Assembly: GCF_019747315.1 (NCBI RefSeq)
Contig: NZ_JAIEQY010000180.1
Coordinates: forward strand, 1-59,513
Source: Roseococcus sp.
GTDB taxonomy: Bacteria; Pseudomonadota; Alphaproteobacteria; Acetobacterales; Acetobacteraceae
DNA length: 59,513 nt
Reading direction: 5' to 3'
Positions within the stretch are counted from its first letter, which is position 1, and every line of letters starts with the position of its first letter. This document shows positions 37,410-59,513 of the stretch, piece after piece. The translations under genes and the position numbers were made by a program. The notes below the pieces were generated by a model. The model was not told the DNA's origin and made no database searches. It saw only the letters and a program-made list of their open reading frames with translations.

Positions 37410-37502
37410 GACTGCCTCCCTGTCATCGCAAAATGCTGAAGAAACTCAGCTCTGCTGTCCAGCCAGACCAGCGGAAGAGCTGGGAAGAAATGCGTTGCAA
37501 TG

Positions 37503-37522
37503 CCTAATCTAGTTAACCTAGG
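37503..37522. promoter_or_regulatory. Candidate MarR operator
   Basis: CCTA...CTAGTTAACCTAGG is an AT-rich near-palindrome centred on GTTAAC (37512-37517), lying 10 bases before the marR ATG in otherwise GC-rich DNA. Position and symmetry suggest autoregulation and control of the divergent cupin gene. Confidence 0.45.
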
Positions 37523-37531
37523 CTTGGCGCC

Positions 37532-38092
37532 ATGCCGAAACGCCGTGCCGCCACGCCAAGCCCAGCGCCGCTGACCACCTCACGGGCAGCATTGCTGGAA
37601 GATGGCTCGGACGCCGCGTTTCGCCGGCTGGTGAACGGTCTGCTGGCGCTCTCCCAGCGGCACCAGGCGTTGCGCGATGGGCATGCCGCGCGCATCGGCC
37701 TCGCCGGCCCCGCCTATTCCATCCTCATCTCCGTGCTGCATTTGGGCGCACAGGGGCCGGTCTCGGTGAGCGACGTGGCGAGCCACATGAAGGTGAGCGC
37801 CGCCTTCATCACCGCCGAGACCAACAAGCTCGAAGCGGCCGGCTTGCTGGAAAAGCGTCGCGATCCGCAGGATGGGCGCCGCGTGCAACTCGCCGTCACG
37901 GCGGCCGGGAGCGCGCGCCTGGCAGCCCTCGCGCCAACGCAGCGGCTGGTCAACGACATCGAATTCGGCCCGCTCAGCCGCACGGAATTCCGCACGCTGC
38001 TGCGGTTGGTCGAGAGCCTGACCGGCGCGGCCGACCGCGCACTCGAACTCCAGCAGGCGCTGACCGCCGAAGACCAGCGCGGTGCCGCATGA
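37532..38092 (+). CDS. MarR-family transcriptional regulator
   Basis: A 186-residue regulator with the MarR winged HTH (VSVSDVASHMKVSAAFITAE, then KLEAAGLLEKRRDPQDGRRV). A basic N-terminal extension of about 25 residues precedes it. Such proteins usually release DNA when they bind an aromatic or phenolic ligand, which fits the HpaB-type monooxygenase gene 21 bp downstream. It heads the operon reaching 45790. A palindrome overlies its own start region. Confidence 0.92.
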   Translation: MPKRRAATPSPAPLTTSRAALLEDGSDAAFRRLVNGLLALSQRHQALRDGHAARIGLAGPAYSILISVLHLGAQGPVSVSDVASHMKVSAAFITAETNKLEAAGLLEKRRDPQDGRRVQLAVTAAGSARLAALAPTQRLVNDIEFGPLSRTEFRTLLRLVESLTGAADRALELQQALTAEDQRGAA

Positions 38093-38113
38093 ACCCCCAG
38101 GGAGTTTCCCCTC

Positions 38114-39598
38114 ATGGCTGACGTGAAGACCGGTGCCCAGCACATCGCGAGCCTGCGCGATGGCCGCAGCGTCTATCTGGATGGCGCCCTCGTTGCCGAT
38201 GTGACGACCCATCCGGCATTTCGTGGCGCCGTGCAGTCCGCCGGCATGCTCTATGACTACCAGGCCAAGCCCGACAACATCGAGCGCATGACCTTCGATT
38301 GCGGCGGCGGACGGCGCGCGAGCCGCGCCTGGCAGATGCCCCGCTCGCGCGAGGAGCTGGTGGCGCGGCGTGAGGCGCTTTCGTCCTGGTCGGCGCAATC
38401 CTGCGGGTTCATCGGCCGCAGCCCGGACCATGTGGCCTCGGCGCTGATCGGCCAGGCCATGGGAATCGAGGTCTTCGAAAAGCACGGCCCGGCCCGCGCC
38501 CGCGCGCTGCGCGACTATGTGGCGGAAGCCACGCGGCAGGACTGGTTCCTGACCTATGTCATCATCAACCCGCAGGCCGATCGTTCCAAGGCCTGGGGCG
38601 AGCAGGCGGAGGCGGATCTTTCCGCGCGCATCGTGGATGAGGATGCCGGCGGCATCACCATCCGCGGTGGCAAGATGCTCGGCACCTCCTCCATTATGGC
38701 CAATGAGGTGCTGGTCGCGAATCTGCAGCCGCTGAAGCCGGGCGAGGAAAGCCTCGCCTTCTCCTGCGCGCTGCCGATGAACACCAAGGGCATCAAGGTT
38801 CTCTCGCGCAAATCCTATGAGGCGCATGCGGTGAGCGAGTGGGACAACCCGCTCTCCTCGCGCTACGATGAGAATGACGCGGTGCTGTGGTTCCAGGATG
38901 TGAAGGTGCCGTGGGAGCGGGTGTTTGTGCATCGCGACACCGACATGTGCCGCGCCCAGTTCCACGACACCTGGGGCCACACCATGCAGAACTACCAGGC
39001 GCAAATTCGCCTGACGGAGAAGCTGCGCTTCCTCACCGGCATCGCCCGCCGCGTGGCCGAGACCATCGGCACGGTGAACATGCCCCCGGTGCGCGATGCG
39101 CTGGGCAAGCTCGCCGCGCAGGCCGCCGGCGTCGAGGCGATCCTGCACGGCATGGAGGCCTCCGGCGCACAGCAGGGCGAGTGGTTCGTGCCCAACAAGC
39201 ACATGATGTACGCGGCCCAGGTGCTGACGCAGGAGCTGTATCCGCAGATCGTCTCCACCATTCGCGACCTCGCGGGGGGCGGCATGATCATGCTGCCCTC
39301 CTCGGCGGCGGATTATGGCAATCCGGAGATGGCCCGCATCATCCGCACCACGCAGCAATCGCCGGTGGCGACGCCGGATGAGCGGGTGAAATTCATGAAG
39401 CTGGCCTGGGACGCAGTGGGCAGCGAATTCGCCAGCCGGCATCTGCAATACGAGATGTTCTACGCCGGCGCGCAATTCGTCACGCGCGGGCATTCCTGGC
39501 GCACTTATGACTGGGACCGGGCGCTGGGCATGGTGGATGGGCTGCTGGACAGCTACGCAATGGCCGACAGCGTCGCTGCGCCAGGACGCGCGGCATGA
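38114..39598 (+). CDS. HpaB-family FADH2-dependent monooxygenase
   Basis: A 494-residue member of the 4-hydroxyphenylacetate 3-hydroxylase family (N-terminal and C-terminal domains both present). Recognisable segments are QDWFLTYVIINPQADRSKAW, NPLSSRYDENDAVLWFQDVK and GGGMIMLPSSAADYGNPEMA. Relatives hydroxylate phenols, pyrrole-carboxylate or other heteroaromatics with free FADH2 from a separate reductase; no reductase gene (HpaC) is visible in this window. Its stop overlaps the transporter start (ATGA), so uptake and hydroxylation are co-expressed. The substrate is unknown. Confidence 0.9.
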   Translation: MADVKTGAQHIASLRDGRSVYLDGALVADVTTHPAFRGAVQSAGMLYDYQAKPDNIERMTFDCGGGRRASRAWQMPRSREELVARREALSSWSAQSCGFIGRSPDHVASALIGQAMGIEVFEKHGPARARALRDYVAEATRQDWFLTYVIINPQADRSKAWGEQAEADLSARIVDEDAGGITIRGGKMLGTSSIMANEVLVANLQPLKPGEESLAFSCALPMNTKGIKVLSRKSYEAHAVSEWDNPLSSRYDENDAVLWFQDVKVPWERVFVHRDTDMCRAQFHDTWGHTMQNYQAQIRLTEKLRFLTGIARRVAETIGTVNMPPVRDALGKLAAQAAGVEAILHGMEASGAQQGEWFVPNKHMMYAAQVLTQELYPQIVSTIRDLAGGGMIMLPSSAADYGNPEMARIIRTTQQSPVATPDERVKFMKLAWDAVGSEFASRHLQYEMFYAGAQFVTRGHSWRTYDWDRALGMVDGLLDSYAMADSVAAPGRAA

Positions 39599-40470
39599 TC
39601 GCACAGCAGCTCGTCAACGGGCTGATGCTGGGTGGCATTTACGTTTTGGTCGCAGTCTCCTTCACGCTGTTTTTCGGCTGCTTGAACTTCCTCAACTTCT
39701 CCGTCCCCGCGCTGTTCATGCTGGGCGGGTTCCTCACCTGGGCGGGTGTGGCGGCGGGTCTCGCCTGGCCGCTCGCGGTGCTGCTGGCGCTGGTGGTGGC
39801 GGCACTCGCCTCGCTGCTGGTCGAGCGTCTCACCTGGCGATTGCAACGCGGCGGGCCACCGCTGATCCCGCTCGTCTCCTCGCTCGGCTTCCTCATCCTG
39901 TTCGAGAATCTGGTCCTGGTGCGCTGGGGCTCCGATGCGCGGGCCATCCCCTCGCCCTTCGGCGATGCCAATTGGCGGATCGGCGAGCTGGTGATCGGCC
40001 TGCCGCAGCTCTTTGGTCTGATCCTCTCCATCGGCCTGGTCTTCGGGCTGCAGGCGCTGCTGAAGCGCACCAAGCTCGGCCGGGGCATCCGCAGCCTCGC
40101 CGAGAATGCCGAGACGGCGACCATGCTGGGCGTGGAGGTGGACCGCGTGGCACCGCGCCTGTTCCTCCTGGCGGGGCTGTTCTGCGCGTTGGCGGGCGTG
40201 CTCTTCTCGCTCTCCTACCAGCTGGTCTCGCCCTATATGGGCGACCAGGTGGCGCTGAAGGGGCTTTCGGCGATGGTGCTCGGCGGCATGGGGAATATCT
40301 GGGGCGCGGTGATCGGCGGGCTGATCATCGGGCTGGTCGAGATCTTTGCGGTGGGCGCGCTTTCGGCCGATCACGTGAATGTGGTGGTCTTCGGCATCCT
40401 GCTGCTGAGCCTGATCATCAGGCCCACGGGCCTCTTCGGGGACCCCGCGCTGGGCCAGCAGAAGCTGTGA
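39595..40470 (+). CDS. Branched-chain-type ABC transporter permease (LivH family)
   Basis: A 291-residue inner-membrane permease with about eight hydrophobic segments. LivH features include QQLVNGLMLGGIYVLVAVSF, GRGIRSLAENAETATMLGVE and LSAMVLGGMGNIWGAVIGGL. It begins a complete five-gene transporter (permeases, two ATPases, receptor) in overlapping order. Given the monooxygenase upstream, it more likely imports an aromatic or heterocyclic carboxylate than leucine. Confidence 0.93.
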   Translation: MIAQQLVNGLMLGGIYVLVAVSFTLFFGCLNFLNFSVPALFMLGGFLTWAGVAAGLAWPLAVLLALVVAALASLLVERLTWRLQRGGPPLIPLVSSLGFLILFENLVLVRWGSDARAIPSPFGDANWRIGELVIGLPQLFGLILSIGLVFGLQALLKRTKLGRGIRSLAENAETATMLGVEVDRVAPRLFLLAGLFCALAGVLFSLSYQLVSPYMGDQVALKGLSAMVLGGMGNIWGAVIGGLIIGLVEIFAVGALSADHVNVVVFGILLLSLIIRPTGLFGDPALGQQKL

Positions 40471-41303
40471 GCGGCTACACCGCCGCCATCCTCACGCTTT
40501 TGGCGATCAACATCATCGCCGCCTATGCGGCCTGGCTTCCGCTTGCGGCGGGGCAGGTGAATCTCGGCACGGCCGGCTTCATGGCGATCGGTGCCTATTC
40601 CTCGGCCGTGCTGAGCAATGAATTCGAATGGTCGCTCGCGACTTCGATTGCGGCGGGCGCGCTTTGCGCGGGCGGCTTCGCCATGGCCATCGGGGGGCCG
40701 GTGCTGCGGACGCGGGGGCTTTACCTTGCGCTGGCTACGCTCGCCTTCAACGAGGTGGTGCGCGGCATCCTGATCAACCTCGATGTGGTGGGCGGGGCCG
40801 CTGGCTATCCGGTCATCGGCCATCTGGGCTTGGCACCCATCGCCGCCTGTGCGGCCGGCGTCTTCCTCCTGGCGCTCTGGCTCGGCGCGAGCCGGCTGGG
40901 GATGAACCTGCACGCCATCGAGCAGGATGAGACGGTGACGGCGCTGTTCGGCGTGCATGTGCCCTTCACCCAGCTCGCGGCCTTCACCATCGGCGGCGCG
41001 ATGGCGGGGTTGGCGGGCGGGCTCTACGGGCATCACTTCTCCTTCATCGAGGGCCAGCATTTCAACGTGCTGCTTTCCGTCACCATCGTGCTCTCGGTGG
41101 TGCTGGGCGGCACGCAGACGGTCTGGGGGCCAGCCATCGGTGCCGCGTTCTTCACCCTGCTGCCGGAGATTTTCCGCGGTGCCGCCGCCTGGCGCTACGT
41201 GCTCTTCGCTGCCGCTGTCATCCTGGTGATGGCGATCCGGCCACAGGGGTTGATAACCCGCGCCGACCTGATGCGGCTGCGCCGGGCGGTCCGGCCGGCA
41301 TGA
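40467..41303 (+). CDS. Branched-chain-type ABC transporter permease (LivM family)
   Basis: A 278-residue permease with the LivM pattern (LPLAAGQVNLGTAGFMAIGA, LRTRGLYLALATLAFNEVVR, GGTQTVWGPAIGAAFFTLLP). I place the start at the GTG at 40467, overlapping the LivH stop (GTGA). The frame is open far upstream, but that part is a shadow of livH. It pairs with LivH in the membrane. Confidence 0.92.
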   Translation: MSGYTAAILTLLAINIIAAYAAWLPLAAGQVNLGTAGFMAIGAYSSAVLSNEFEWSLATSIAAGALCAGGFAMAIGGPVLRTRGLYLALATLAFNEVVRGILINLDVVGGAAGYPVIGHLGLAPIAACAAGVFLLALWLGASRLGMNLHAIEQDETVTALFGVHVPFTQLAAFTIGGAMAGLAGGLYGHHFSFIEGQHFNVLLSVTIVLSVVLGGTQTVWGPAIGAAFFTLLPEIFRGAAAWRYVLFAAAVILVMAIRPQGLITRADLMRLRRAVRPA

Positions 41304-42068
41304 GCGCGCCGCTCCTCGACATCCGCGGCCTGCGCAAGAGTTTCGGCGGCCTGGATGTCGTGCGGGGCTTGGACCTCCAGGTGGCGCAGGGGGAGCGTGT
41401 GGCGCTGATCGGACCCAACGGCGCGGGCAAGACCACCGTCTTCAACCTCGTCAATGGCTACTACGCGCCGGATGCCGGCGAGATTCGGCTGGGCGCCGTG
41501 GATCTCGTGCCCGTGGCACCCCGCCGGCGCATCCGCCATGGCCTCGCGCGCTCCTTCCAGAATATCCGCCTGATCGGCCATCTGACAGTGCTGGAGAATG
41601 TGCTGCTCGGCGCGCATGTGCATGCCGGCGGGCCGCTCGCCATGCTGCTGCCCATGGGATTGGGCCGTGGCCGCGCCCTGCGCGAGGACGCCCGCGCGCG
41701 CCTGGCCGAGGCCGGGCTGGCTGGCCATGCCGGCAGCCTCGCCGGCGGCCTCGCCTATGGCTTGCGCAAGCGCGTCGAGGTGGTGCGCGCCCTGATGGCG
41801 CGGCCGCGCCTGCTCCTGCTGGACGAGCCCTGCGCAGGGCTCAACACGCAGGAGCGCGGCGCCCTGCTGGCGGAGCTGCACCGCGTCGCCGCGGGCGGCG
41901 TGACGCTCCTGGTGGTGGAGCACGACATGCATTTCGTGGGCGGCCTGTGCCAGCGCGCCGCCGTCCTCAACTTCGGCGAGAAGATCGCGGAGGGCACGCC
42001 CGCCGAAATCGCCCGCGAGCCCGCCGTGATCGAGGCCTATCTGGGCCACGCGCCGGAGCGCTACGCCC

Positions 42069-42076
<8 letters not shown>
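41300..42076 (+). CDS. Branched-chain-type ABC transporter ATPase (LivG family)
   Basis: A 258-residue ATPase with Walker A GPNGAGKTTVFN and Walker B LLLLDEP. The C-terminal AVIEAYLGHAPERY is typical of LivG. The ABC signature region reads SLAGGLAYGLRKRVEVVRAL, where the usual LSYGQQR-type motif appears as LAYGLRKR. It overlaps its neighbours on both sides (ATGA upstream, 8 bases downstream). Confidence 0.92.
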
Positions 42077-42814
<738 letters not shown>

Positions 42815-42818
<4 letters not shown>

Positions 42819-43999
42819 TCCGCCGTCGCCCCCTGCTGCTGGCCGGGCTTGCCCTGCCGGCCATCGCCACCGCGCAATCCGCGCCGCTTCCCCTCGGTTT
42901 CACCACCGCGAAATCCGGCAACTGGGTCTCGCTCACCCGCCGGAACGAGATCGCGGTGAACCTCGCCGTGGAGGAGGTGAATGCGGCGGGCGGCATCCAT
43001 GGCCGGCCGATCGCCATCCGCACCTTCGACACCGCCTCGCGCCCCGAGCAGGCGGCCATCGCGACCCGCCAATTCGCTGAGGATGACGGCGCGCTAGCCG
43101 TCATCGGCCCCTTCAGCAGCAGCGAATGCCGTGTGGCCTTCCCGGTGGGGGATCGCCTGGGCATTTCGCAGATGGCCATTGCCAGCAGCGCGCCGGGCCT
43201 GGCGGCTCCCTTCCGCTTCGCCTTCCGCAACACCTCCGACGAGGCGTATCTGTTTGAGCGCCTGCTTTCCGTGGTGCGCGAGCGCGGCATCGAGACCCGC
43301 AACGCCGCCATCGCCTACACGACGGATGAGGTGATAGGCCGCTCCATGGGCACGTCGGTCTTCCCGAACCTGTTGCAGGCGGCGGGCATCCCGATCACCG
43401 GTTCCGTCTCCTTCCCCGTCGCGGCCTTCGACATGTCGGCGCAGGTCGCGCAGATGCGCGGCGGCGCGCCGGACCTGGTCTGCATGGGCGGCCCGCCGGA
43501 GCCCGCCATCGTGCTGGTGCGCGAGATGCGGCGCCAGGGCATGCGCGGGCGCATCGTGGGCGGCACCACCATCGTGGATGTGAACCTGCCCTCCCGCATG
43601 GGGGCGGATGGCAATGGCACGCTGGTGTCCTCCACGCATTTCTACAATTTCGACAGCCCGCGCGCGGTCGCCTTCCGCGACGAGTTCGTGAAGCGCGCCC
43701 AGGCCGCGGGCGAGACGGGCGATCTCCGGCCCGGCATGTATGACGCGGCGGCGCACAGCATCGTGCATTTCTACGCCGCCGCCATGCGCCAGGTGCGCGT
43801 AACGGGCGAGCGCGCGCGCCTCGCCGCCGAGCGCGCCGCCATCCGCGACACGCTGCGCGCCATGCGCAATGTGGAAACCATCGAGGGCACGCTGGCCCGC
43901 TTCACCGAGCAGGGCGACGCGCTGAAGACCACCTATGTGCTGGAAGTGCGCGACGGCAATTTCGTGCTGGTGGGCACCCGCCCGCCGCCGACGGCCTGA
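42815..43999 (+). CDS. ABC transporter substrate-binding protein (LivK family)
   Basis: A 394-residue periplasmic receptor of the Leu/Ile/Val-binding type. The signal peptide is MIRRRPLLLAGLALPAIATA with cleavage near residue 20. The first lobe has RNEIAVNLAVEEVNAAGGIH and GRPIAIRTFDTASRPEQAAI. It is unusual for the receptor to come last in the transporter set. The ligand is unknown; compounds acted on by the co-expressed HpaB-type enzyme or enamidase-like enzyme are candidates. Confidence 0.92.
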
Positions 44000-44009
44000 G
44001 GCGCGGGAG

Positions 44010-44594
44010 ATGCGACTGGAACTCCGGCGCTCCTTCGTGATGGTGGATCAGACGGAGGTGCCGGCCGCCAGCCGCGATCCCGGCCCACCGCTGCGCCGCG
44101 TGGCCGTGACCGGCGTCGTCGCGAACCCCTATGCCGGGCAGGGCTTCGTGGCCGATCTCTCGGCCAGCATCGCGGCGAGCGAGGCGGTGGGGCGCGAACT
44201 CTCGGGCATGGCGGTCGCCGCCATGGGCCCGCATGCCGTCGAGAGCTACGGCAAGGGCGCCGTCGTCGGGCTGAATGGCGAGCAGGAGCACGCCAATGCC
44301 ATGCTCACCACCGTCTTCGCCGAGCCCTTGCGCGCGGCGGTGGGCGGCGGCCTGGCCTGGCTGCCCAGCTTCACCAAGCGCGGCGGGCCGGGCACGATCA
44401 TCGACGTGCCGCTCGCGCATAAGGACGCGCTCTATGTCCGCTCCCATTATGACGGCATGACGCTGATGCTGCCCGATGCGCCGCAAGCCGATGAGGTGGC
44501 GCTGATCATCGTCATCGCCAATCGCGGGCGGTTTGATGCGCGCGTGGGCGGTCTTGCCGCGGCCGATATCTCGCGGCGCGACGGGCTGCGCTGA
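44010..44594 (+). CDS. Amino acid synthesis family protein (PF06684, DUF1185)
   Basis: A 194-residue protein of the DUF1185 family. Structures of this family show a variant Bacillus-chorismate-mutase fold, and a role in amino-acid metabolism has been proposed, but no reaction is established. Conserved segments are VAVTGVVANPYAGQGFVADL, SYGKGAVVGLNGEQEHANAM and TIIDVPLAHKDALYVRSHYD. The ATG at 44010 has GGGAG directly before it; 44037 is the alternative start. Its TGA shares a base with the amidohydrolase start, so they are probably coupled and may act in sequence. Confidence 0.88.
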   Translation: MRLELRRSFVMVDQTEVPAASRDPGPPLRRVAVTGVVANPYAGQGFVADLSASIAASEAVGRELSGMAVAAMGPHAVESYGKGAVVGLNGEQEHANAMLTTVFAEPLRAAVGGGLAWLPSFTKRGGPGTIIDVPLAHKDALYVRSHYDGMTLMLPDAPQADEVALIIVIANRGRFDARVGGLAAADISRRDGLR

Positions 44595-45790
44595 TGCGCA
44601 CCGCCATCATCAACATCGGCGGCATCGCCACGGGCGATCTCGCGGCGCCGCTGCGAGAGGGCGAGGCCATCCTGATGGAGGCCGGACGGATCATGCGCAT
44701 CGGCACGCTCGATGCGGCGGCGCTGGAATCCTGCGATGTGGTGGTGGATGCGGCCGGCACCCTCGCCACCCCCGGCCTGGTCGACAGCCATGTCCACATC
44801 ACCTTCGGCGACTACACGCCGCGCCAGCGAACGGTGGGTTTCCTGGAGAGCTACCTGCATGGCGGCGTCACCACCGCCATCACCGCCTCCGAGGTGCATG
44901 TGCCCGGCCGCCCCAAGGACCCGGCGGGGGTGAAGGCGCTGGCGCTGGCCGCCGCCGCCTGCTTCCGGGATTACCGGCCGGGCGGGATGCGCGTGCATGC
45001 GGGCTCGGTGATCCTGGAGCCTGGCCTGACCACGGCCGATCTGCAGGAATTGGCGGCGGCCGGAATCTGGCTGGCCAAGGCCGGCTTCGGCGCCTTCCCT
45101 ACACCGCATGACTACGCGCCCCTGATGCTGGCGGCGCGCGCGGCCGGCATGATCACGACCATGCACACGGGTGGCGCCTCCATCCCCGGCTCCTCCGGCA
45201 TCTGGGCCGAGCATGTGCTGGCCAGCCACCCCAATGTCAGCTTCCACGTAAATGGCGGCCCCGTCGCCATGCCCGAGCCGGGCTTCGCGCGCCTGGTGAA
45301 TGAGAGCGACATCGCCCTGCAGATCTGCACCGCCGGCAATCTGCGCACCGCGCTGCTGACGGCAAAACTCCTGGCCGAGGCGGGGCAGTTGGAACGCCTG
45401 CTCATCGCGACCGATACGCCGACCGGCAGCGGAATCATGCCGCTCGGCATGCTCTACACCATCAGCCATCTTGCGAGCCTGGGCGGCATGGCGCCGGAGA
45501 TCGCCATCGCGGCCGCCACCGGCAACAACGCCCGCGTCTATCGGCTGAATTCCGGCATCCTCGCCGAAGGGCGGGACGCGGATGTGATCCTGCTCGATGC
45601 TTGCGCCGGCGGGGCCTGCGACGATGCGCTGTCAGCCCTCCGCAATGGGGATATTCCGGCGGTGGGCGCGGTGTTCTCGGCCGGCGTGCCGCGGTTTGTG
45701 GGGCGCAGCCGGAACACGCCGGCGACCATTCGCCCGGTGCGGGTGGCGGCTTGCCGGCTGCCGATGGATTTCTCCGGCGCGGGGCATTGA
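44594..45790 (+). CDS. Enamidase-like amidohydrolase
   Basis: A 398-residue amidohydrolase-superfamily enzyme. It has the metal motif HVHITFGDY (HxH near residue 71), HTGG, HVNGGP and the Asp in IATDTPTGSGIMPLG. As recalled, the run DYTPRQRTVGFLESYLHGGV, the HVPGRPKDPAG segment and the MHTGGASIPGSSG segment parallel the enamidase of Eubacterium barkeri, which opens the ring amide of 6-oxo-tetrahydronicotinate. Ring opening of a partly reduced N-heterocycle is therefore the leading hypothesis; other cyclic amides or imides are possible. It ends its operon at a hairpin that includes its stop codon. Confidence 0.85.
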   Translation: MRTAIINIGGIATGDLAAPLREGEAILMEAGRIMRIGTLDAAALESCDVVVDAAGTLATPGLVDSHVHITFGDYTPRQRTVGFLESYLHGGVTTAITASEVHVPGRPKDPAGVKALALAAAACFRDYRPGGMRVHAGSVILEPGLTTADLQELAAAGIWLAKAGFGAFPTPHDYAPLMLAARAAGMITTMHTGGASIPGSSGIWAEHVLASHPNVSFHVNGGPVAMPEPGFARLVNESDIALQICTAGNLRTALLTAKLLAEAGQLERLLIATDTPTGSGIMPLGMLYTISHLASLGGMAPEIAIAAATGNNARVYRLNSGILAEGRDADVILLDACAGGACDDALSALRNGDIPAVGAVFSAGVPRFVGRSRNTPATIRPVRVAACRLPMDFSGAGH

Positions 45791-50728: not shown

Positions 50729-50749
50729 GGGGGCGCTCCATGGTGAGTG

Positions 50750-50778
50750 TTGTATGCAAAGACCAGCAATCTGCATAC
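50750..50778. promoter_or_regulatory. Candidate GntR operator in the SDR promoter
   Basis: TTGTATGCAA (50750-50759) lies 22 bases upstream of the SDR start. With TGCATAC (50772-50778) it makes a perfect GTATGCA/TGCATAC inverted repeat with a 13-base spacer. The same TTGTRTGCAA motif occurs twice on the other side of the gntR gene. Confidence 0.6.
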
Positions 50779-50795: not shown

Positions 50796-51506
50796 TCAGT
50801 CGAGGCCCGCGATCAGGTCCAGCAGGTTCTCACCGAGCAGGGTGAGGTGCGCGCGCATGCTGCGATGCGCCGCCTCCGGATCGCGTGCCAGAATGGCGGC
50901 CATGATCTCGGCATGCTCGCGCAGCGTGTCCTCGACGCGGGTGGGCATGTGCGTGACGCGGCGGCGGTAGGCAGCCACGCGGTTGCGCAGGCGGCGGGTT
51001 TCCTCGGCCAGGAAGGCGTTGTGCGCGGCCTCGTAGATCGCCTCGTGGAATTCCTCGTTGATGTCGTAGAACACATCGGCCGGTGCGGGAGCAGCCTCCA
51101 TCAGGCGGGTGTGGATGGCCTGGAGCGCCGCGTTCTGGGCCGGCGTGCTGCGCCGGGCGGCGAGGCGCGCGCAGAGCCCCTCCAACTCGCCCATGACCTG
51201 GAACATCTCGATCAGCGTCTGCGCGGAGATGCTGCGCACCACCGCACCCTGCCGGCCGCGCAACTCCACCAGGCGCTCGGCGGCGAGCAGGCGGAACGCC
51301 TCGCGCACCGGCGTGCGGGAGCAGCCGCTGCTGTCGGCGATGTCCTGCTCATCCAGTCGCGCGCCGGGCTCGAGGCGTCCGCTGGCGATCTCGTCCCGCA
51401 GGCGGCGGTGGAGCGTATTGGCCAGGGAGCCAGCCCCCGGCGTGGCGCGGCCCATGCGCCCGGAAGCTGGCCATTCTGCCTCGGTGGCTGCCTGTTTTGC
51501 GCGCAT
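50796..51506 (-). CDS. GntR-family regulator (FadR/FCD subfamily)
   Basis: A 236-residue regulator. The N-terminal winged HTH reads LHRRLRDEIASGRLEPGARL, then SGCSRTPVREAFRLLAAERL. The C-terminal FCD all-helical domain has the metal-ligand pattern D/H in FYDINEEFHEAIYEAAHN and H in REHAEIMAAILARDPEAAHR. Members respond to organic acids. It lies between the two operons that carry its likely sites. The start is uncertain: the ATG at 51506 abuts an operator and has no Shine-Dalgarno; 51455 is an alternative. Confidence 0.9.
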   Translation of the reverse strand: MRAKQAATEAEWPASGRMGRATPGAGSLANTLHRRLRDEIASGRLEPGARLDEQDIADSSGCSRTPVREAFRLLAAERLVELRGRQGAVVRSISAQTLIEMFQVMGELEGLCARLAARRSTPAQNAALQAIHTRLMEAAPAPADVFYDINEEFHEAIYEAAHNAFLAEETRRLRNRVAAYRRRVTHMPTRVEDTLREHAEIMAAILARDPEAAHRSMRAHLTLLGENLLDLIAGLD

Positions 51507-51544
51507 TTGTGTGCAAAAGCCCCTTCATTGTGTGCAAACGCCCC
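51507..51544. promoter_or_regulatory. Two tandem GntR-type operators in front of the NMT1-type ABC operon
   Basis: TTGTGTGCAAAAGCCCC (51507-51523) and TTGTGTGCAAACGCCCC (51528-51544) are direct repeats with a 21-base step, two helical turns. Each holds the TTGTRTGCAA motif seen at 50750. They lie 38-75 bases upstream of the ABC ATPase start and touch the gntR start, so one protein could control both directions. Confidence 0.65.
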
Positions 51545-51581
51545 GGGCTTTGTATTTCAAAACCCGGCGCCTGTCGCGAAC

Positions 51582-53164: not shown

Positions 53165-53185
53165 AACCCCGCAGGAGACCTCATC

Positions 53186-54184
53186 ATGAACAGGCGCCAC
53201 ATCCTGGCCGCAAGCCTCGCCACCCCCTTCATCCGGCCCGCCGGCGCGCAGACCCTGGTGCGCGCCTCGCTGCGCCTGAAATGGCTGACGCAGGCGCAAT
53301 TCGCCGGCTTCTACGTGGCGCTGCAAAAGGGCTATTACCGCGAGGCCGGCATCGACCTCACCATCAACCCGGGCGGGCCGAACATCCTGACCGAGAACCT
53401 GGTTGCCTCGGGGGCAGACACCTTCGGCCTTTCCGGTGGCACGGACAGCGTCTTCGCGGCGCGCGAGCGCAGCCTGCCCATCGTCTGCGTGGGCGTGATG
53501 CACCAGCAGACGCCCTTCGTCTTCGTGGCGCGCGCCGACGGGCCCATCCGCACGCTGGCCGATTTCCGCGGCAAGACCATCACCACATGGTTCACCGGCG
53601 CCAACTTTGTGCTGCTGGGCATGCTGGCGCAGGCGGGGCTCAGCCGCACCGACTTCACCATGCAGCCGCAGCAGGTGAGCGTGCAGCCCTTCGTGGACCG
53701 CCAAGTGGATGTCGTCACCGCCACCCGCTACAACGAGTTCTTCACGCTGATGAACCGGGTGGGTCGCGACAACCTCCGCAGCTTCGTGCCCGATGAGCAC
53801 GGCATCACCTTCCCGCGCGACACCGTCATCGTCAGCGAGCAGACGGCGCGCGACCGCCCGCAGATGGTGCAGGGCTTCCTGCGCGCCACCATTCGCGGCT
53901 GGCGCGATGCGCTGGCCGACAACAAGGCCGGCGTAGATGCCGTGATGTCCGTCGCCCCCACGCTCAACCGCCCCCATCAGGAATTCATGCTGGTGGAGGC
54001 CGGAAAGCTGATGGTGGCGGGCGGCGCCGCGCGGAACGGCCTGTTCTGGATTGACCGCCCGGTCATCCAGGCCGCGCATGATTTCTTCTTGCGCAACGAG
54101 GTGATCAAGACGCCGCTCGACCTCGCAGCCGCCTACAATTCCAGCTTCCTGGAGGCCCTGCCGGTGGCGGACCGCATGGCATGA
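53186..54184 (+). CDS. ABC transporter substrate-binding protein, NMT1/THI5-like
   Basis: A 332-residue periplasmic receptor. Signal peptide MNRRHILAASLATPFIRPAGA is cut near residue 21. VRASLRLKWLTQAQFAGFYV and GYYREAGIDLTINPGGPNIL are typical of the NMT1/THI5 (HMP-precursor, pyrimidine) receptor group. Relatives bind formylaminopyrimidine, nitrogen heterocycles or sulfonates. Its start has a Shine-Dalgarno (GGAGA). Confidence 0.9.
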   Translation: MNRRHILAASLATPFIRPAGAQTLVRASLRLKWLTQAQFAGFYVALQKGYYREAGIDLTINPGGPNILTENLVASGADTFGLSGGTDSVFAARERSLPIVCVGVMHQQTPFVFVARADGPIRTLADFRGKTITTWFTGANFVLLGMLAQAGLSRTDFTMQPQQVSVQPFVDRQVDVVTATRYNEFFTLMNRVGRDNLRSFVPDEHGITFPRDTVIVSEQTARDRPQMVQGFLRATIRGWRDALADNKAGVDAVMSVAPTLNRPHQEFMLVEAGKLMVAGGAARNGLFWIDRPVIQAAHDFFLRNEVIKTPLDLAAAYNSSFLEALPVADRMA

Positions 54185-54936: not shown

Positions 54937-55673
54937 ATGCCCGCTCCGCCGTACGCGGCGCGGTGGGCATGGTGATCATCCTGGCGATCTGGGAGACGCT
55001 GGCGCGCGGTCTGGCGCTGCCCGCCTATACCCTGCCGGCGGTGAGCCAGATCCTCGCCGCCGTGGCCGAGCACCGCAAGGCGCTGCAGGCGGCGGCCCTG
55101 GTGACGGGCTTCGAGGCGGTGACGGGCTATGTCATCGGCGCCCTGGCGGGGTTGGCGGTGGCCACGCTCCTCATCCTCGCGCGGCCCTTGCGGGCGACGG
55201 CGCTGCCCTTGCTGCTCGCCATCAACTCCGTGCCGGTGGTGGCATGGTCCCCGCTCGTGCTGCTGTGGTTCGGCATGGGGGTCGCGTCCAAGATCGTCAT
55301 GGTGGCGCTGGCGGTGGGCTTCACCGTCTTCCTCAGCGCGCTGGCGGGTTTCGACCGGGTGGATCGGCGCAGCGTGGATCTGATGCGCAGCTTCGGCGCC
55401 GGGCGTTTCGGCATCTTCTGGCGGCTGCGCCTTCCGGCGGCCCTGCCGTTGATCGCGGCGGGGCTGCGCGTCGCCACCGTGCGGAGCCTGATCGTCGCCA
55501 TCGTCACGGAGATGCTGGGCGCCTATGGCGGGCTCGGCTGGATCATCTACCAATCCGTCACGCTGATTGATTTCGTGCAGGTCTGGGCCGCCATCCTTGT
55601 CGCCTCCACGCTCAGCCTCGCCTTCTTCGGCCTGGTCGGTGCGCTCGAGCGGCGCCTGATCTTCTGGCGATGA
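54933..55673 (+). CDS. ABC transporter permease (SsuC/ThiX-like), second of two
   Basis: A 246-residue permease homologous to the first, with the loop AGFDRVDRRSVDLMRSFGAG and FGIFWRLRLPAALPLIAAGL. I use the GTG at 54933, overlapping the previous stop. Two different permeases indicate a heterodimeric channel, as in ThiXYZ-related and pyrimidine-precursor importers. Confidence 0.9.
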   Translation: MNARSAVRGAVGMVIILAIWETLARGLALPAYTLPAVSQILAAVAEHRKALQAAALVTGFEAVTGYVIGALAGLAVATLLILARPLRATALPLLLAINSVPVVAWSPLVLLWFGMGVASKIVMVALAVGFTVFLSALAGFDRVDRRSVDLMRSFGAGRFGIFWRLRLPAALPLIAAGLRVATVRSLIVAIVTEMLGAYGGLGWIIYQSVTLIDFVQVWAAILVASTLSLAFFGLVGALERRLIFWR

Positions 55674-56974
55674 GCGCGCCCATGCGTCAGATGCATCTCG
55701 GCCTGTTCCTGCTGGGCACCGGCAGCCATGTGGCCGGCTGGCGCATGCCGGGCGCGGTAACGAGCTTCCAGGACATCCACGCCATCCAGCAAATGGCGGC
55801 GACGGCCGAGCGCGGTTGCTTCGACCTCATCTTCATGGGCGACAATCTCTACGCCGACCCCGGCGCGCACCCCTCCTACACGCTCCGCCTGGAACCGCTG
55901 ACCATGCTGGCGGCGCTGGCGATGACGACGACGCATATCGGCCTGGGCGCCACCGTCGCGACCACCTACAGCGACCCCTGGAGCGTGGCCCGCGCCTTCG
56001 CCTCGCTCGACCACATCAGCGGCGGGCGGGCGGCCTGGAATGCGGTGACGGGATCGAGCGCGCAGGCCGCGCCGAATTTCGGCCGCACCCATCCCAACCA
56101 CGCCGAGCGCTACGCCATCGCCGCCGAATTCGTGGATGTGGTGCGCGGCCTCTGGGATGGTTGGGAAGATGACGCGCTGGTGGCGAACCGCGCGACGGGC
56201 CTCTATCTCGACCCCGCCAAGCTGCACCCGCTCAACCATGAGGGCGTGCATTTCTCGGTGAAGGGACCGCTCAACATCGGCCGCGCGCCGCAGGGCAGGC
56301 CCGTCATCCTGCAGGCAGGCGGTTCCGAGGCGGGGCTCGACCTGGCCGCGCGCACGGCCGATGTGGTCTTCGCCGTGGTGCAGGATTTCGACGAGGCGCG
56401 CGGGCAGTACCAGGCGCTGAAATCCCGCCTGGGCGCGCATGGACGCCGCCCGCAGGATGTCGCCGTGCTGCCCGGCGTCATGCCCATCGTGGGCCGCACC
56501 GAGCGCGAGGCGCTGGACAAGCTGGCCCAGCTGCAAGGCTTCATCAGCCCGGGCAATGCACTGCAATTGCTGCAGGACCGGCTGGGCATCGACCTCACGG
56601 GGCAGGACATGGACGCCCCGCTCCGTGACCTGCCGCTGCATGATGGCGGCCATGGCTTCGCCCGCACCCTGCTGAGCAAGGCGCGGCGCGACAACCTCAC
56701 CTTGCGCGATGTCTACAACCTGCTGGGGGCGGCGCGCGGCCATTGGGTGCTCTGCGGCGCGGCCGAGCAGGTGGCGGATACCTTGCAGCACTGGTTCGAG
56801 GGGGGCGCGGCCGATGGCTTCAACGTCATGCCCTCGCATTTCCCGGGCGGCATGGATGATTTTGTGGAGCTGGTGGTGCCCATCCTCCAGGCGCGCGGCC
56901 TTTTCCGCACACGCTACGAGGGGCGCACATTGCGGGATTCGCTGAGGCTCACCCGGCCGGAGCGAGGTGGCTGA
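55670..56974 (+). CDS. NtaA/SnaA/DmoA-family FMN-dependent monooxygenase
   Basis: A 434-residue bacterial-luciferase-like monooxygenase of the NtaA group (nitrilotriacetate, dimethyl sulfide, alkane-type substrates). Family segments include CFDLIFMGDNLYADPGAHPS, TTHIGLGATVATTYSDPWSV, ISGGRAAWNAVTGSS and GRPVILQAGGSEAGLDLAAR. It needs FMNH2 from a separate reductase, not seen nearby. The start overlaps the permease stop (ATGA). It may cleave C-N or C-S bonds of the imported compound. Confidence 0.92.
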   Translation: MSAPMRQMHLGLFLLGTGSHVAGWRMPGAVTSFQDIHAIQQMAATAERGCFDLIFMGDNLYADPGAHPSYTLRLEPLTMLAALAMTTTHIGLGATVATTYSDPWSVARAFASLDHISGGRAAWNAVTGSSAQAAPNFGRTHPNHAERYAIAAEFVDVVRGLWDGWEDDALVANRATGLYLDPAKLHPLNHEGVHFSVKGPLNIGRAPQGRPVILQAGGSEAGLDLAARTADVVFAVVQDFDEARGQYQALKSRLGAHGRRPQDVAVLPGVMPIVGRTEREALDKLAQLQGFISPGNALQLLQDRLGIDLTGQDMDAPLRDLPLHDGGHGFARTLLSKARRDNLTLRDVYNLLGAARGHWVLCGAAEQVADTLQHWFEGGAADGFNVMPSHFPGGMDDFVELVVPILQARGLFRTRYEGRTLRDSLRLTRPERGG

Positions 56975-57192
56975 TCGGCAGGCGACACTGGGTGTCCGTC
57001 TGACCGGCAGAGGGCCGCGCGCTCTTTCGATGCAAGTCTCGTCTACGCCACAGAGCTCCGCGTTGCGCAATTTCAGCCGGCGGTTGAGGATGGCCGCCAT
57101 CCACCACGCCCAGCCGGAATTCCGCACCCGGGCCCACCCAAGCCGGGCGCAGCCGCGTGCCGGCATCATCGCGGAGTGACACCTTGACCCTG
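56975..57192. other. Unassigned 218-bp interval
   Basis: A break in an otherwise continuous operon. Both strands hold short open frames (for example 56967-57179 plus) with no recognisable domain, and I see no strong terminator or promoter. It may be an intergenic promoter region for the alcohol dehydrogenase and hydratase genes, or a degraded gene. Confidence 0.35.
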
Positions 57193-58320
57193 ATGATCCT
57201 GCTGAACCGCATCCAGTTCGCGCATGGCGCGATCGCGGAGACCGCGGGCGAATTGGCGCTGGCGGGCATCACCAGGCCGCTCGTCATCACCGATACGGGC
57301 GTGGTCGCTGCCGGGCTGTGGGACCGGCTGCGCGCAACACTTCCCCCGGGCTTGCCGCTCGCCGTCTTTACCGATGTCCCACCCAACCCGACCGAGGCGG
57401 CGGTGCGCGCGGCCGTTGCCGCCTTCCACGCGCATGGCGCCGATGGCGTGCTGGCGCTGGGTGGCGGTTCGCCGATGGACCTGGCCAAGGCCGTGGCCCT
57501 GCTGGCGACCCATGGCGGCGGCTCGCTCGCCGCATTCTCGGTCGTCGAAGGTGGACTGGCGCGGATCACCGCGCGCGCCGCGCCCATCATCGCGGTGCCC
57601 ACGACCTCGGGCACGGGCAGCGAGGTCTCGCGCGGCGCGTTGATCGTGATGGAGGATGGCCGCAAGCTCTCCGTCGGCAGTCCGCATCTGATCCCCCGCG
57701 CGGCCATCTGCGATCCGGATCTTACCCTCGGCCTGCCGCCGCGCCTGACCGCAGGGACAGGCATGGATGCGCTGGCCCATGCCGTGGAGACGCTGTGCTC
57801 ACCGCGCGAGAACCCGATCGCCGATGCCATCGCGCGCGATGGGCTGGCGCGGGCCTGGGCGCATCTGCCCCGCGCCGTGGCCGATGGCCGCGACGCCGTG
57901 GCACGGCATCAGATGATGCTGGCCTCGGTGGAAGCGGCCCTGGCCTTCCAGAAGGGGCTGGGTGCGGTGCACGCGCTCTCGCATCCGCTGGGCGGCCTCG
58001 CGGTCTCGCCGCATCACGGCACGCTGAACGCGCTGCTGCTGCCGCATGTGCTGCGCTTCAACGCGCCGGCCATCGCCCCCGTTCTGCCGGTGCTGGGTGC
58101 GGCGATGGGCCTCGCGGATCACCGTGCGGAGGCCCTCGCAGATGCCATCTCCGCCATGTCCGAGCGCATCGGGCTGCCCGCGCGACTCTCGGCGCTGGCC
58201 GTCACGCCGGCGGATCTTGGCCCCCTTGCGGCGGCGGCGATGCGCGATCACCATCACCTGACAAATCCGCGCCGCGCCAGCGAGGCCGAGTATCTCGGCC
58301 TGTTGCAAGCGGCGTTCTGA
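57193..58320 (+). CDS. Iron-containing alcohol dehydrogenase, maleylacetate-reductase-like
   Basis: A 375-residue group III dehydrogenase. It has the NAD-binding [11 protein letters not shown] and [14 protein letters not shown]. Metal ligands occur in [13 protein letters not shown] (D, H), [12 protein letters not shown] (H) and [13 protein letters not shown] (H). The family includes maleylacetate reductase, which feeds ring-cleavage products into 3-oxoadipate, and alcohol dehydrogenases. I start at the ATG at 57193; a TTG at 57184 and an ATG at 57157 are alternatives. Confidence 0.9.
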
Positions 58321-58331
58321 CGGGGGAAACC

Positions 58332-59513
58332 ATGGCCACCGAGCCACGGACGATGTTCGACAAGATCTGGGCGCGGCACCGCGTCCTGGAGCGCGAGGAC
58401 GGGCAGACGCTGCTCTATGTGGACCGCCACCTGGTGCATGACGGCTCCGCCCCCGCCTTCGAGATGCTGCGCGCGCGCGGCATGTCGCCCCGTGCGCCGG
58501 ACCGCATCTTCGCTACCCCCGACCACTATGTGCCGACCGACACGCGCGAGGTGAACGAGATCGCCAATGCCGAGCATCGCGGCATGGTGGAAGCGCTGGA
58601 ACGCCATGCGAAGGAAAGCGGCTTCCGGCTCTTCGGGCTGAAGGATGGCGGCCAGGGCATCGTGCATGTCGTCGGGCCCGAGACGGGGCTGAGCCAGCCC
58701 GGCATGCTCATCGTCTGCGGCGACAGCCATACCTCGACCCATGGCGCCTTGGGCGCCTTGGCCTTCGGCATCGGTTCGACCGAGGTGGCGCATGTGTTGG
58801 GCACGCAGACGCTGTGGCAGCGCAAGCCGAGGACGATGCGCATCACGGTCACCGGCGCGCTCGGCTTCGGCGTCACGGCCAAGGACGTGATCCTCGCCAT
58901 CATCGCCGAGATCGGCGCGGCGGGCGCCAATGGCCATGTGATTGAATATGCCGGCAGCGCCATCACCGGCCTCTCGATGGAGGGGCGGCTGACGCTGTGC
59001 AACATGTCCATCGAGGCGGGCGCGCGCGCCGGCATGGTGGCGCCGGACGAGACGACCTTCGCCTATCTCAAGGGCCGCGAATACGCGCCCGCCGATTGGG
59101 ACCTCGCCGTGGCGCGCTGGCGCGAATTGCCAAGCGACGCTGACGCCGTCTTCGATCGCGAGGTGGTGCTGGATGGCAGCGCCATCGCGCCCATGGTGAC
59201 CTGGGGCAACAGCCCCGAGGATGCCCTGCCCATCACCGCCCATCTGCCCGATCCGACGCAGGAGGCCGATGCCGAGCGCGCGGCGACGATCCGCGCCAAC
59301 TTCGCCTATATGGGCCTCTCGGCCGAGATGCCGCTGACCGACATCCAGGTGGATCGCGTCTTCATCGGCTCCTGCACCAATGGCCGCATCGAGGATCTTC
59401 GCGCCGCCGCCGCCGTGGCCCGCGGGCGCAGCGTGGCACCCGGCGTCATCGCCTGGGTTGTGCCTGGCTCCGCCCCGGTGAAGCGCCAGGCCGAGGCCGA
59501 AGGGCTGGACCGT
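58332..59513 (+). CDS. 3-isopropylmalate dehydratase large subunit family protein (LeuC-like), truncated by window edge
   Basis: An aconitase-superfamily subunit running off the window after 394 codons; the full family length is about 470. [33 protein letters not shown] (here as [20 protein letters not shown]), and [15 protein letters not shown] with a cluster-ligand Cys are clear. Its start is 11 bp after the alcohol dehydrogenase gene, so it belongs to the catabolic operon. It could be the leucine enzyme or a hydratase paralogue (citraconate or methylmaleate type). Whether leuD and leuB follow would distinguish these. Confidence 0.85.

What the first reader, a model, noticed from the sequence alone, without database searches (positions are those of the whole stretch)
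37410..59513. Catabolic island with an enamidase-like ring opener, two flavin monooxygenases and two ABC importers
Three operons with two regulators carry an HpaB-type and an NtaA-type monooxygenase, an enamidase-like amidohydrolase, a DUF1185 protein, an M20 carbamoylase-like enzyme, a bicupin, an alpha/beta hydrolase, an aminotransferase, an aldolase, a maleylacetate-reductase-like dehydrogenase and a LeuC-type hydratase. No named pathway that I know combines these. Seen: families and gene order. Known: E. barkeri enamidase opens 6-oxo-tetrahydronicotinate, and nicotinate fermentation also uses an aconitase-type dimethylmaleate hydratase. Inferred: the island degrades a nitrogen heterocycle or cyclic amide.
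Basis: partly seen in the sequence, partly recalled or inferred. Interest (0 to 1): 0.75.

Follow-up and report, generated by a model that had tools for sequence, protein, structure and literature searches.

The report
Modular pyridine-type ring-opening gene cassette
The stretch is not one pathway but at least three gene sets that occur separately in related genomes; the first looks like an undescribed bacterial kit that hydroxylates a nitrogen-containing ring and then opens it, and its reaction is testable but not yet shown.

Summary
The genes are real, but the "island" is not one pathway. Relatives separate it into modules. (A) cupin / marR–hpaB–livHMGF–SBP–DUF1185–enamidase-like. (B+C) a 12-gene GntR unit with the M20, aminotransferase, aldolase and NtaA genes; it occurs intact in 7 relatives, 4 of which lack A's enamidase. 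(D) Fe-ADH–leuC, which in 4 relatives lies elsewhere and continues with leuD–leuB.

Its amidohydrolase ("Enam1") matches E. barkeri enamidase over its full length. Lys162 is invariant in 85 of 85 Enam1, where 16 of 16 "Enam2" paralogues and E. barkeri enamidase have Glu. The same genome carries Enam2 in a molybdenum-hydroxylase cluster resembling the published nicotinate cluster. Enam1 is therefore probably not the nicotinate enamidase.

In 80 named loci, DUF1185 is adjacent to Enam1 in 70. An HpaB monooxygenase (22 loci) and a PnpA/HspB-like FAD monooxygenase (20 loci) are mutually exclusive at the thresholds used, and swap at least 5 times on the tree. Best reading: a DUF1185–Enam1 ring-opening core fed by interchangeable ring hydroxylases. 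Substrate and chemistry are unproven. New variant of a known kind.

The parts
   Evidence: translation; 71% to the cupin of L051; PF12973 26.3 bits, just under the cut-off of 27; present in 8 of 22 HpaB-type loci
37492..37503 (.). module A: candidate MarR operator, imperfect palindrome around TTGCAA in the cupin/marR gap
   Evidence: its TTGCAATG core is invariant in the 5 same-genus genomes aligned; TTGCAA in 16 of 22 HpaB-type loci against 2.5 expected, with two AT-rich control hexamers also enriched
37532..38092 (+). module A: MarR-family regulator
   Evidence: PF12802/PF01047; in 21 of 22 HpaB-type loci
38114..39598 (+). module A: HpaB-type flavin monooxygenase, oxygenase component
   Evidence: PF11794 + PF03241; best PDB 9lft 247 bits; below both HpaB equivalog cut-offs
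39595..40470 (+). module A: LivH-type permease
   Evidence: PF02653
40467..41303 (+). module A: LivM-type permease
   Evidence: open frame and synteny
41300..42076 (+). module A: LivG-type ATPase
   Evidence: ORF and synteny
42069..42818 (+). module A: LivF-type ATPase
   Evidence: ORF and synteny
42815..43999 (+). module A: LIV-type substrate-binding protein
   Evidence: PF13458
44010..44594 (+). module A core: DUF1185/PF06684 protein
   Evidence: PF06684 199.7 bits; 2qtp 3.5e-42; AlphaFold model TM 0.9 to 3byq
44594..45790 (+). module A core: enamidase-like amidohydrolase Enam1
   Evidence: 2vun 3.5e-101 full length; model TM 0.88 to 2vun, next listed fold 0.62; K162 in 85 of 85
45818..46726 (-). 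module B: gentisate-dioxygenase-like cupin
   Evidence: PF07883; weak NCBIfam gentisate dioxygenase match, far under cut-off
46717..47919 (-). module B: M20 carbamoylase/deacylase-like hydrolase
   Evidence: TIGR01879 359 bits, cut-off 204
47923..48804 (-). module B: alpha/beta hydrolase
   Evidence: PF00561; esterase 5egn 84.5 bits
48816..49949 (-). module B: PLP aminotransferase (PRK06225)
   Evidence: 510 bits, cut-off 351
49949..50776 (-). module B: SDR dehydrogenase (PRK06125)
   Evidence: 396 bits, cut-off 261
50796..51506 (-). module B: GntR/FCD regulator
   Evidence: PF07729 + PF00392
51597..52430 (+). module C: NitT-type ATPase (start uncertain)
   Evidence: PF00005
52427..53164 (+). 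module C: class II aldolase/adducin family protein (PRK07044)
   Evidence: 349 bits, cut-off 207
53186..54184 (+). module C: NMT1/THI5-type substrate-binding protein
   Evidence: PF09084
54181..54936 (+). module C: permease 1
   Evidence: PF00528
54933..55673 (+). module C: permease 2
   Evidence: ORF and synteny
55670..56974 (+). module C: NtaA/DmoA-family FMN monooxygenase
   Evidence: TIGR03860 above cut-off; 3sdo 362 bits
57193..58320 (+). module D: Fe-dependent alcohol dehydrogenase, near 4-hydroxybutyrate dehydrogenase
   Evidence: NF058672 484.6 bits, cut-off 500
58332..59513 (+). module D: leuC-type large subunit, cut by the contig end
   Evidence: PRK12466 571 bits, cut-off 531; leuD and leuB follow in four relatives (the pair of G005 scanned)

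Best explanation
The finding fuses independent modules. Module A (37029-45790) is most likely a MarR-controlled catabolic operon for an anionic nitrogen-ring compound. SHOWN: the gene families, the conserved gene order, the frequent DUF1185-Enam1 pairing, the mutually exclusive oxygenases, and the conserved active-site pattern. INFERRED: (1) the LIV-type ABC importer takes up a pyridine- or pyrrole-type carboxylate or hydroxy compound. (2) HpaB, with reduced FAD from a reductase encoded elsewhere, adds a hydroxyl to the ring, so that the ring takes a keto (cyclic enamide) form. (3) Enam1, a two-metal amidohydrolase with Lys162 as the probable bridging ligand, hydrolyses the lactam bond and the resulting enamine, releasing ammonia and an aldehyde or keto acid, as E. 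barkeri enamidase does with 6-oxo-tetrahydronicotinate. (4) DUF1185 acts on the reactive product or helps the next enzyme, as reported for its homologue TgnF. In other bacteria the same DUF1185-Enam1 core is fed by unrelated flavin hydroxylases, so the core is a portable ring-opening cassette.
For: Enam1: full-length hit to enamidase and a structure model that matches 2vun far above any other fold listed. DUF1185 lies within 400 bp of Enam1 in 70 of 80 named loci, and 28 of 31 Enam1/Enam2 places in 60 genomes have DUF1185 adjacent. HpaB (>=55% to the window) in 22 of 80 loci, FMO (>=40%) in 20, both in 0; Fisher p 0.0009, not corrected for kinship. At least 5 switches between them on the Enam1 tree, 45 rows. 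The FMO's best solved relatives are PnpA (203 bits) and HspB, a 6-hydroxypyridine hydroxylase (179 bits); a third type's best is NicC, 104 bits. HpaB at >=65% identity is in 7 of 7 relatives that have Enam1 and in 0 of 52 that do not. HpaC-like flavin reductases stand in 10 of 22 HpaB loci and in none of the 20 FMO loci, as expected for two-component versus one-component enzymes. A molybdenum-hydroxylase iron-sulfur subunit lies within 5 of the 80 loci. TTGCAA stands upstream of module genes in 16 of 22 HpaB-type loci and 1 of 22 FMO-type loci.
Against: I found no assay of any enzyme of this clade. HpaB scores below both 4-hydroxyphenylacetate models, so its substrate is open. 38 of 80 named loci have neither HpaB nor FMO at the thresholds; setting aside 3 with a NicC-like gene and 4 with a 38-41% HpaB, 31 show none of the types I looked for (which also count 2 plasmid loci). 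Some of these are truncated, others have only transporters. HpaB at 60-62% occurs in G016 and G023 without Enam1, and 10 of 38 DUF1185 places lie away from any Enam. The first His of the HxH metal motif is Gln in 24 of 85 Enam1, though not in the window. No flavin reductase was found in the window; the genome gave one distant candidate, 37%. At lower thresholds one locus (L066) has both an FMO and a 39% HpaB at its far edge. Two AT-rich control hexamers were enriched upstream too. DUF1185 also occurs in a coumarin (no nitrogen) pathway, which weakens step 4. Best-hit analogies to HspB, PnpA and NicC are remote; salicylate hydroxylase is nearly as good as NicC (97 bits).
Confidence: 0.55

Rival explanations
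1. Enam1 is simply the nicotinate enamidase: it opens 6-oxo-1,4,5,6-tetrahydronicotinate (THON) as in E. barkeri and Azorhizobium, and HpaB and the rest are incidental.
For: Full-length similarity to E. barkeri enamidase, 42%.
Against: The same genome has Enam2 (G000:C247) beside DUF1185, LIV ATPases and genes that read as molybdenum-hydroxylase subunits (the G005 copy was scanned), like the nicotinate cluster described for Azorhizobium, Bradyrhizobium and SG-6C. Enam2 keeps the Glu of 2vun (16 of 16) where Enam1 has Lys (85 of 85). Enam1 loci of the window type carry an oxygenase, which THON chemistry does not need.
Confidence: 0.08
2. Enam1 is an amidohydrolase-fold ring-cleaving dioxygenase like KpiC, acting on a dihydroxypyridine made by the hydroxylase.
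For: KpiC follows a flavin hydroxylase and cleaves 3,4-dihydroxypyridine; of its closest homologues only enamidase, at 28%, had a confirmed function (passages). The order hydroxylase then amidohydrolase is the same here.
Against: Enam1 is much closer to hydrolytic enamidase (42%) than KpiC is.
Confidence: 0.15
3. A narrower form of the best reading: the substrate is a five-membered ring; HpaB acts as a pyrrole-2-carboxylate-type monooxygenase, and Enam1 hydrolyses the resulting pyrrolinone to 2-oxoglutarate and ammonia.
For: [quoted passage not shown] Lactam plus enamine hydrolysis would give 2-oxoglutarate without extra enzymes (chemical inference), and I saw no downstream enzyme shared by most HpaB-type loci.
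Against: The FMO types that replace HpaB have 6-hydroxypyridine or nitrophenol hydroxylases as best solved relatives, not pyrrole enzymes. No sequence of the pyrrole enzyme was compared.
Confidence: 0.15
4. The whole 37-59.5 kb stretch is one N-heterocycle pathway.
For: A and B+C are adjacent in the window and in G014, and about 9 kb apart in G008.
Against: B+C is intact without Enam1 in G003, G004, G010 and G023; A occurs without B+C in G005; they are about 66 kb apart in G015; D lies elsewhere in G005, G014, G015 and G019 and continues as leuD-leuB.
Confidence: 0.05
5. Module B+C is a separate pathway that cleaves a C-N or C-S bond in an N-acylated or N-carbamoylated amino-acid-like compound: NMT1-type import, NtaA-type oxygenation, M20 deacylation or decarbamoylation, transamination.
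For: The twelve genes stay together in 7 relatives. The NtaA protein is near 3sdo and YtnJ/MoxC, and the M20 protein is above the carbamoylase-family cut-off. LLM monooxygenase plus M20 deacetylase is the S-(2-succino)cysteine pattern in B. subtilis (PMC12757645 and PMC9706529 seen in the search listing with abstract starts; the gene roles are recalled).
Against: The roles of the aldolase, cupin, alpha/beta hydrolase and SDR are not explained; no substrate evidence.
Confidence: 0.3

Closest known systems
Eubacterium barkeri enamidase (PDB 2vun), nicotinate fermentation
   Same: Full-length homology, same fold (TM 0.88), conserved His66, His68, His191, His218 and Asp274 pattern in the window protein
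   Different: Lys162 in place of Glu in 85 of 85 Enam1; no 6-hydroxynicotinate reductase or molybdenum hydroxylase recognised in module A; an oxygenase is present instead; the paralogue Enam2 in the same genome fits the nicotinate role better
Nicotinate cluster of Azorhizobium, Bradyrhizobium and SG-6C (THON route; PMC3511419)
   Same: Enamidase-type gene beside an ABC importer; [quoted passage not shown] DUF1185 stands next to Enam2 in the similar clusters here
   Different: Reductive route without an oxygenase; its enamidase belongs, by gene context, to the Enam2 clade, not Enam1 (inferred; the published sequences were not compared)
Trigonelline pathway of Acinetobacter baylyi (TgnABCDEF)
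   Same: TgnF is a homologue of DUF1185 proteins; a flavin monooxygenase opens an N-ring and an enamide is then hydrolysed (TgnF from PMC7913881 passages; the rest recalled, the PNAS paper was not held)
   Different: As recalled, luciferase-like ring-opening oxygenase and alpha/beta hydrolase rather than HpaB and amidohydrolase; no SSADH in module A
4-Hydroxypyridine kpi cluster of Arthrobacter IN13 (KpiA-KpiC)
   Same: Flavin hydroxylase followed by an amidohydrolase-family ring opener
   Different: KpiC is reported to act as a dioxygenase and is only 28% identical to enamidase; single-component hydroxylase; no DUF1185 named in the printed gene table
HpaB/HpaC 4-hydroxyphenylacetate 3-hydroxylase
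   Same: HpaB domains; HpaC-like reductases in 10 of 22 HpaB-type loci
   Different: Below both HpaB equivalog cut-offs; no homoprotocatechuate genes among the named window genes
NicC/NicX and HspB routes through 2,5-dihydroxypyridine
   Same: Replacement hydroxylases in Enam1 loci have HspB or NicC among their best solved relatives
   Different: No dioxygenase of the NicX kind was recognised beside Enam1 in the loci read by eye (25 loci asked for, one of which printed nothing); not searched with a profile. Ring opening would be by the amidohydrolase

Membership tests
Enamidase (E. barkeri type) | full-length sequence and fold match | tested here: met
Enamidase (E. barkeri type) | metal-ligand pattern HxH ... 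H ... H ... D | tested here: met
   H66, H68, H191, H218, D274 in the window; but Q66 in 24 of 85 Enam1; that these are the ligands is from knowledge of the superfamily
Enamidase (E. barkeri type) | Glu at the strand-4 position (probable bridging ligand) | tested here: not met
   K162 in 85 of 85 Enam1; Glu in 2vun and in 16 of 16 Enam2
Enamidase (E. barkeri type) | operon with nicotinate hydroxylase and 6-hydroxynicotinate reductase | tested here: not met
   none recognised in module A; molybdenum-hydroxylase subunits flank Enam2 instead; no model named the reductase candidate
Enamidase (E. barkeri type) | hydrolyses THON to 2-formylglutarate and ammonia | not testable with these tools
   needs an assay
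HpaB two-component monooxygenase | HpaB_N and HpaB domains | tested here: met
HpaB two-component monooxygenase | 4-hydroxyphenylacetate equivalog score | tested here: not met
   283 vs 480.2 and 271.7 vs 885.2 bits
HpaB two-component monooxygenase | HpaC-type reductase partner | tested here: inconclusive
   none found in the window; 10 of 22 HpaB loci; a 37% candidate elsewhere in the genome
DUF1185/PF06684 (TgnF, HcdD family) | PF06684 above cut-off and DUF1185 fold | tested here: met
Trigonelline (Tgn) pathway | SSADH partner gene | tested here: not met
   no SSADH hit in the window; SSADH (>=50%) in 4 of 80 Enam1 loci
KpiC-type amidohydrolase-fold dioxygenase | orthology to KpiC | not tested
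   KpiC sequence not at hand; only the printed 28% to enamidase
NtaA/DmoA FMN monooxygenases (module C) | TIGR03860 above cut-off | tested here: met
   526.4 vs 279.7 bits

The most novel reading that the evidence does not exclude
DUF1185-Enam1 is a portable hydrolytic ring opener for hydroxylated pyridines: several unrelated flavin hydroxylases (HpaB two-component, PnpA/HspB-like, NicC-like) make one common hydroxypyridone or dihydroxypyridine, and Enam1, with a probable carboxylated-lysine metal bridge, opens it with water instead of the usual ring-cleaving dioxygenase. This would be an undescribed route for aerobic hydroxypyridine breakdown, spread through Alpha- and Betaproteobacteria and Acidobacteria, with DUF1185 given a defined catalytic role.
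Probability: 0.3. Interest if true: 0.75.

Novelty: new variant of a known kind. Interest (0 to 1): 0.55.

Why it matters
DUF1185 structures were released in 2007-2008, but I found no settled function for the family. Enamidase has one PDB entry among my hits. Here the two form a frequent pair across several classes of bacteria, beside interchangeable ring hydroxylases. If the pair opens hydroxylated N-rings with water, it adds an aerobic route that needs no ring-cleaving dioxygenase, gives DUF1185 an assignable role, and lets "amidohydrolase family protein" and "amino acid synthesis family protein" annotations be corrected. The test is small: two or three purified proteins and a panel of hydroxypyridines. 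Splitting the island also stops a false pathway from being built out of unrelated operons.

Tried and rejected
Rejected: one-island pathway. Dimethylmaleate-hydratase analogy for LeuC: in 4 relatives the genes run FeADH-leuC-leuD-leuB, with leuD and leuB above their curated cut-offs in the one set scanned, that of G005. Maleylacetate reductase for the Fe-ADH. Succinate semialdehyde as the general product: SSADH (>=50%) is in only 4 of 80 loci. RidA/YjgF-like role for DUF1185: no RidA chain among the 50 Foldseek rows listed; one chorismatase appears at E 0.056, not significant.

Led nowhere: paper searches for the cluster, judged by their listings, showed no HpaB-DUF1185-enamidase cluster; one search found the DUF1185 and KpiC papers. 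This covers only the open-licence library. The trigonelline paper is not held. NCBIfam and Pfam name no 6-hydroxynicotinate reductase in the Enam2 cluster. Promoter scan empty.

Caveats on my counts: genes in fetched loci were called by an ad hoc codon-usage script or placed by tblastn; the 80 loci are the best of 226 confirmed, several truncated; the NicC-like class (L082, L086, L099) was recognised by eye, one member tested against the PDB. TTGCAA control: of six control hexamers, AT-rich TTGGAA and TAGCTA were also enriched (9 of 22 each), so intergenic composition explains part of the signal. The tree is a quick one; 25 of 84 inner branches are weak, and no shuffled-label control was printed for the 5 changes.

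Full report
WHAT IS THERE. The window is a whole contig (C404, 59,513 bases) of a 407-contig assembly. Two same-genus relatives carry Enam1 on contigs of the same length as named Roseococcus contigs (G008/L048, G007/L050), so the genus is probably Roseococcus (inferred).

THE ISLAND FALLS APART. I compared 25 window proteins with stretches of relatives. Module A (marR-hpaB-livHMGF-SBP-DUF1185-Enam1) is syntenic in G005, G008, G014 and G015 at 89-98% identity. Modules B+C form one 12-gene unit around gntR: intact in G003, G004, G010, G015 and G023, G014 and G008 (read by eye). The aminotransferase search found a match in 9 of 60 genomes including our own; seven relatives are at 80% identity or more. 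Of these seven, only G008, G014 and G015 have Enam1. G005 has A without B+C: no aminotransferase hit at E <= 1e-60 and an aldolase of at best 51%. In G015 A and B+C lie about 66 kb apart. Module D (Fe-ADH-leuC) lies elsewhere in G005, G014, G015 and G019 and continues there with leuD- and leuB-like genes (those of G005 scored 185 and 462 bits against cut-offs of 116 and 353). Among 80 named Enam1 loci, the B cupin, M20, aminotransferase and aldolase were found in one (L047, whose contig length equals that of G014's contig), NtaA relatives in two others at 33 and 46%, and Fe-ADH and leuC in none.

THE ENAMIDASE-LIKE PROTEIN. It matches E. barkeri enamidase 2vun over residues 2-383 of 398, E 3.5e-101; the next PDB sequence is at 4e-8. 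An AlphaFold model (39 sequences, mean pLDDT 85) matches 2vun with TM 0.88 and 42% identity; the next row, imidazolonepropionase, is at 0.62. In 85 Enam1 proteins (window, 80 named loci, 4 plasmid records) Lys162 is invariant, as are H68, H191, H218 and D274; the first His of HxH is His in 61 and Gln in 24. In 16 of 16 "Enam2" paralogues, and in 2vun, the position of Lys162 is Glu. That this residue bridges the two metals, as a carboxylated lysine in Enam1, is inference from the amidohydrolase superfamily.

THE SAME GENOME HAS THE OTHER TYPE. Enam2 (G000:C247) stands beside DUF1185, LIV ATPases and genes that read as molybdenum-hydroxylase subunits (domains named for the G005 copy). [quoted passage not shown] I could not name the 6-hydroxynicotinate reductase with a profile. 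So Enam2 is the better candidate for the nicotinate enamidase, and Enam1 most likely does something else.

DUF1185 IS THE USUAL PARTNER. In 60 genomes (own included), 28 of 31 Enam places have DUF1185 adjacent and 28 of 38 DUF1185 places have an Enam adjacent. In 80 named loci, DUF1185 is within 400 bp of Enam1 in 70 and somewhere in the held stretch in 74. [quoted passage not shown] A homologue, TgnF, stimulates succinate-semialdehyde oxidation in the trigonelline pathway, and another, HcdD, is induced in a 7-hydroxycoumarin pathway without a proven role (PMC7913881, passages). The coumarin case has no nitrogen and counts against a purely nitrogen-linked role.

OXYGENASES ARE INTERCHANGEABLE. 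HpaB (>=55% to the window) is in 22 of 80 loci, a single-component FAD monooxygenase (FMO, >=40%) in 20, both in none; Fisher p 0.0009, not corrected for kinship. At lower thresholds four more loci have HpaB of 38-41%, and L066 has both an FMO and a 39% HpaB at its far edge. HpaB loci carry marR (21 of 22), LIV genes (18), an HpaC-like reductase (10) and the small cupin (8); FMO loci carry a DUF4286/EthD-like gene (16 of 20) and a GntR gene (11), and no reductase. The FMO's best solved relatives are PnpA (203 bits) and HspB, 6-hydroxy-3-succinoylpyridine 3-monooxygenase (179 bits). A third type, recognised by eye in L082, L086 and L099, has NicC, 6-hydroxynicotinate 3-monooxygenase, as best hit (104 bits, with salicylate hydroxylase at 97; L082 tested). 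On the Enam1 tree the HpaB/FMO labels of 45 rows (window, 42 named loci, 2 plasmid loci) need at least 5 changes. Of the 80 loci, 38 have neither; less the 3 NicC-like and 4 low-identity HpaB loci, 31 have none of these types, some truncated, some with transporters only. The core may also serve substrates that need no hydroxylation.

CO-OCCURRENCE. Enam1 is in 8 of 60 genomes, own included. HpaB at >=65% is in the same 8 and in none of the other 52; at 60-62% it is also in G016 and G023, which lack Enam1. In G007 HpaB and Enam1 are on different contigs yet both present, and a flavin reductase follows Enam1.

REGULATION. An imperfect palindrome around TTGCAA (37492-37503) lies in the cupin/marR gap; TTGCAATG is invariant in the 5 same-genus genomes aligned. 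TTGCAA occurs upstream of module genes in 16 of 22 HpaB-type loci against 2.5 expected from random stretches of the same loci, and in 1 of 22 FMO-type loci (2.7 expected; 20 named and 2 plasmid loci). Two of six control hexamers, both AT-rich, were also enriched (9 of 22 each), so part of this is intergenic composition.

MECHANISM AND STATUS. Best reading: import, ring hydroxylation to a keto (cyclic enamide) form, hydrolytic opening and deamination by Enam1, product handling by DUF1185. The first two steps and the last are inferred; the third rests on homology to a characterised enzyme plus conserved residues. The ring could be six- or five-membered, and a KpiC-like dioxygenase role for Enam1 (PMC7356986, passages) is not excluded. 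Within the open-licence library, the listings of searches showed no description of this gene set.

Noticed in passing
window 37029-37409 (-): Small ChrR-like cupin divergent from marR, 71% to the cupin next to HpaB in Bradyrhizobium L051; its role is unknown. A cupin (HcdF, not compared) also accompanies DUF1185 in the 7-hydroxycoumarin cluster.
   Followed up: partly
window 45818-56974: A 12-gene unit (GntR, SDR, aminotransferase, alpha/beta hydrolase, M20, cupin, NitT importer, class II aldolase, NtaA) travels as one block in 7 relatives; a pathway in its own right, function unknown to me.
   Followed up: partly
window 57193-59513; L179, L180, L181, L182: Fe-ADH followed in relatives by a leuC-leuD-leuB set and a gene that reads like a tripartite-tricarboxylate-type binding protein; another leuC-like stretch lies elsewhere in our genome (G000:C377, 71% DNA identity).
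   Followed up: partly
L087, L089-L093, L095, L096, L100, L102-L104, L106, L108, L109, L112, L115, L117, L119-L121, L123-L125: 24 of 85 Enam1 proteins have Gln in place of the first His of the HxH metal motif; 13 of them are FMO-type loci.
   Followed up: no
L123: Two Enam1 copies about 8.5 kb apart on one betaproteobacterial contig, the first cut by the contig end.
   Followed up: no
L089, L096: Burkholderiales loci in which two genes that read like dihydrodipicolinate-synthase family members flank DUF1185-Enam1, with no oxygenase seen (by eye).
   Followed up: no
L051, L055, L057, L058, L062: Bradyrhizobium loci with two HpaB genes (59-60% and 66-68% to the window) around one DUF1185-Enam1 pair.
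   Followed up: no
window 27950-28293 (-): tmRNA gene, printed as tmRNA* by ARAGORN, tag ANDNVREDMALAA.
   Followed up: no
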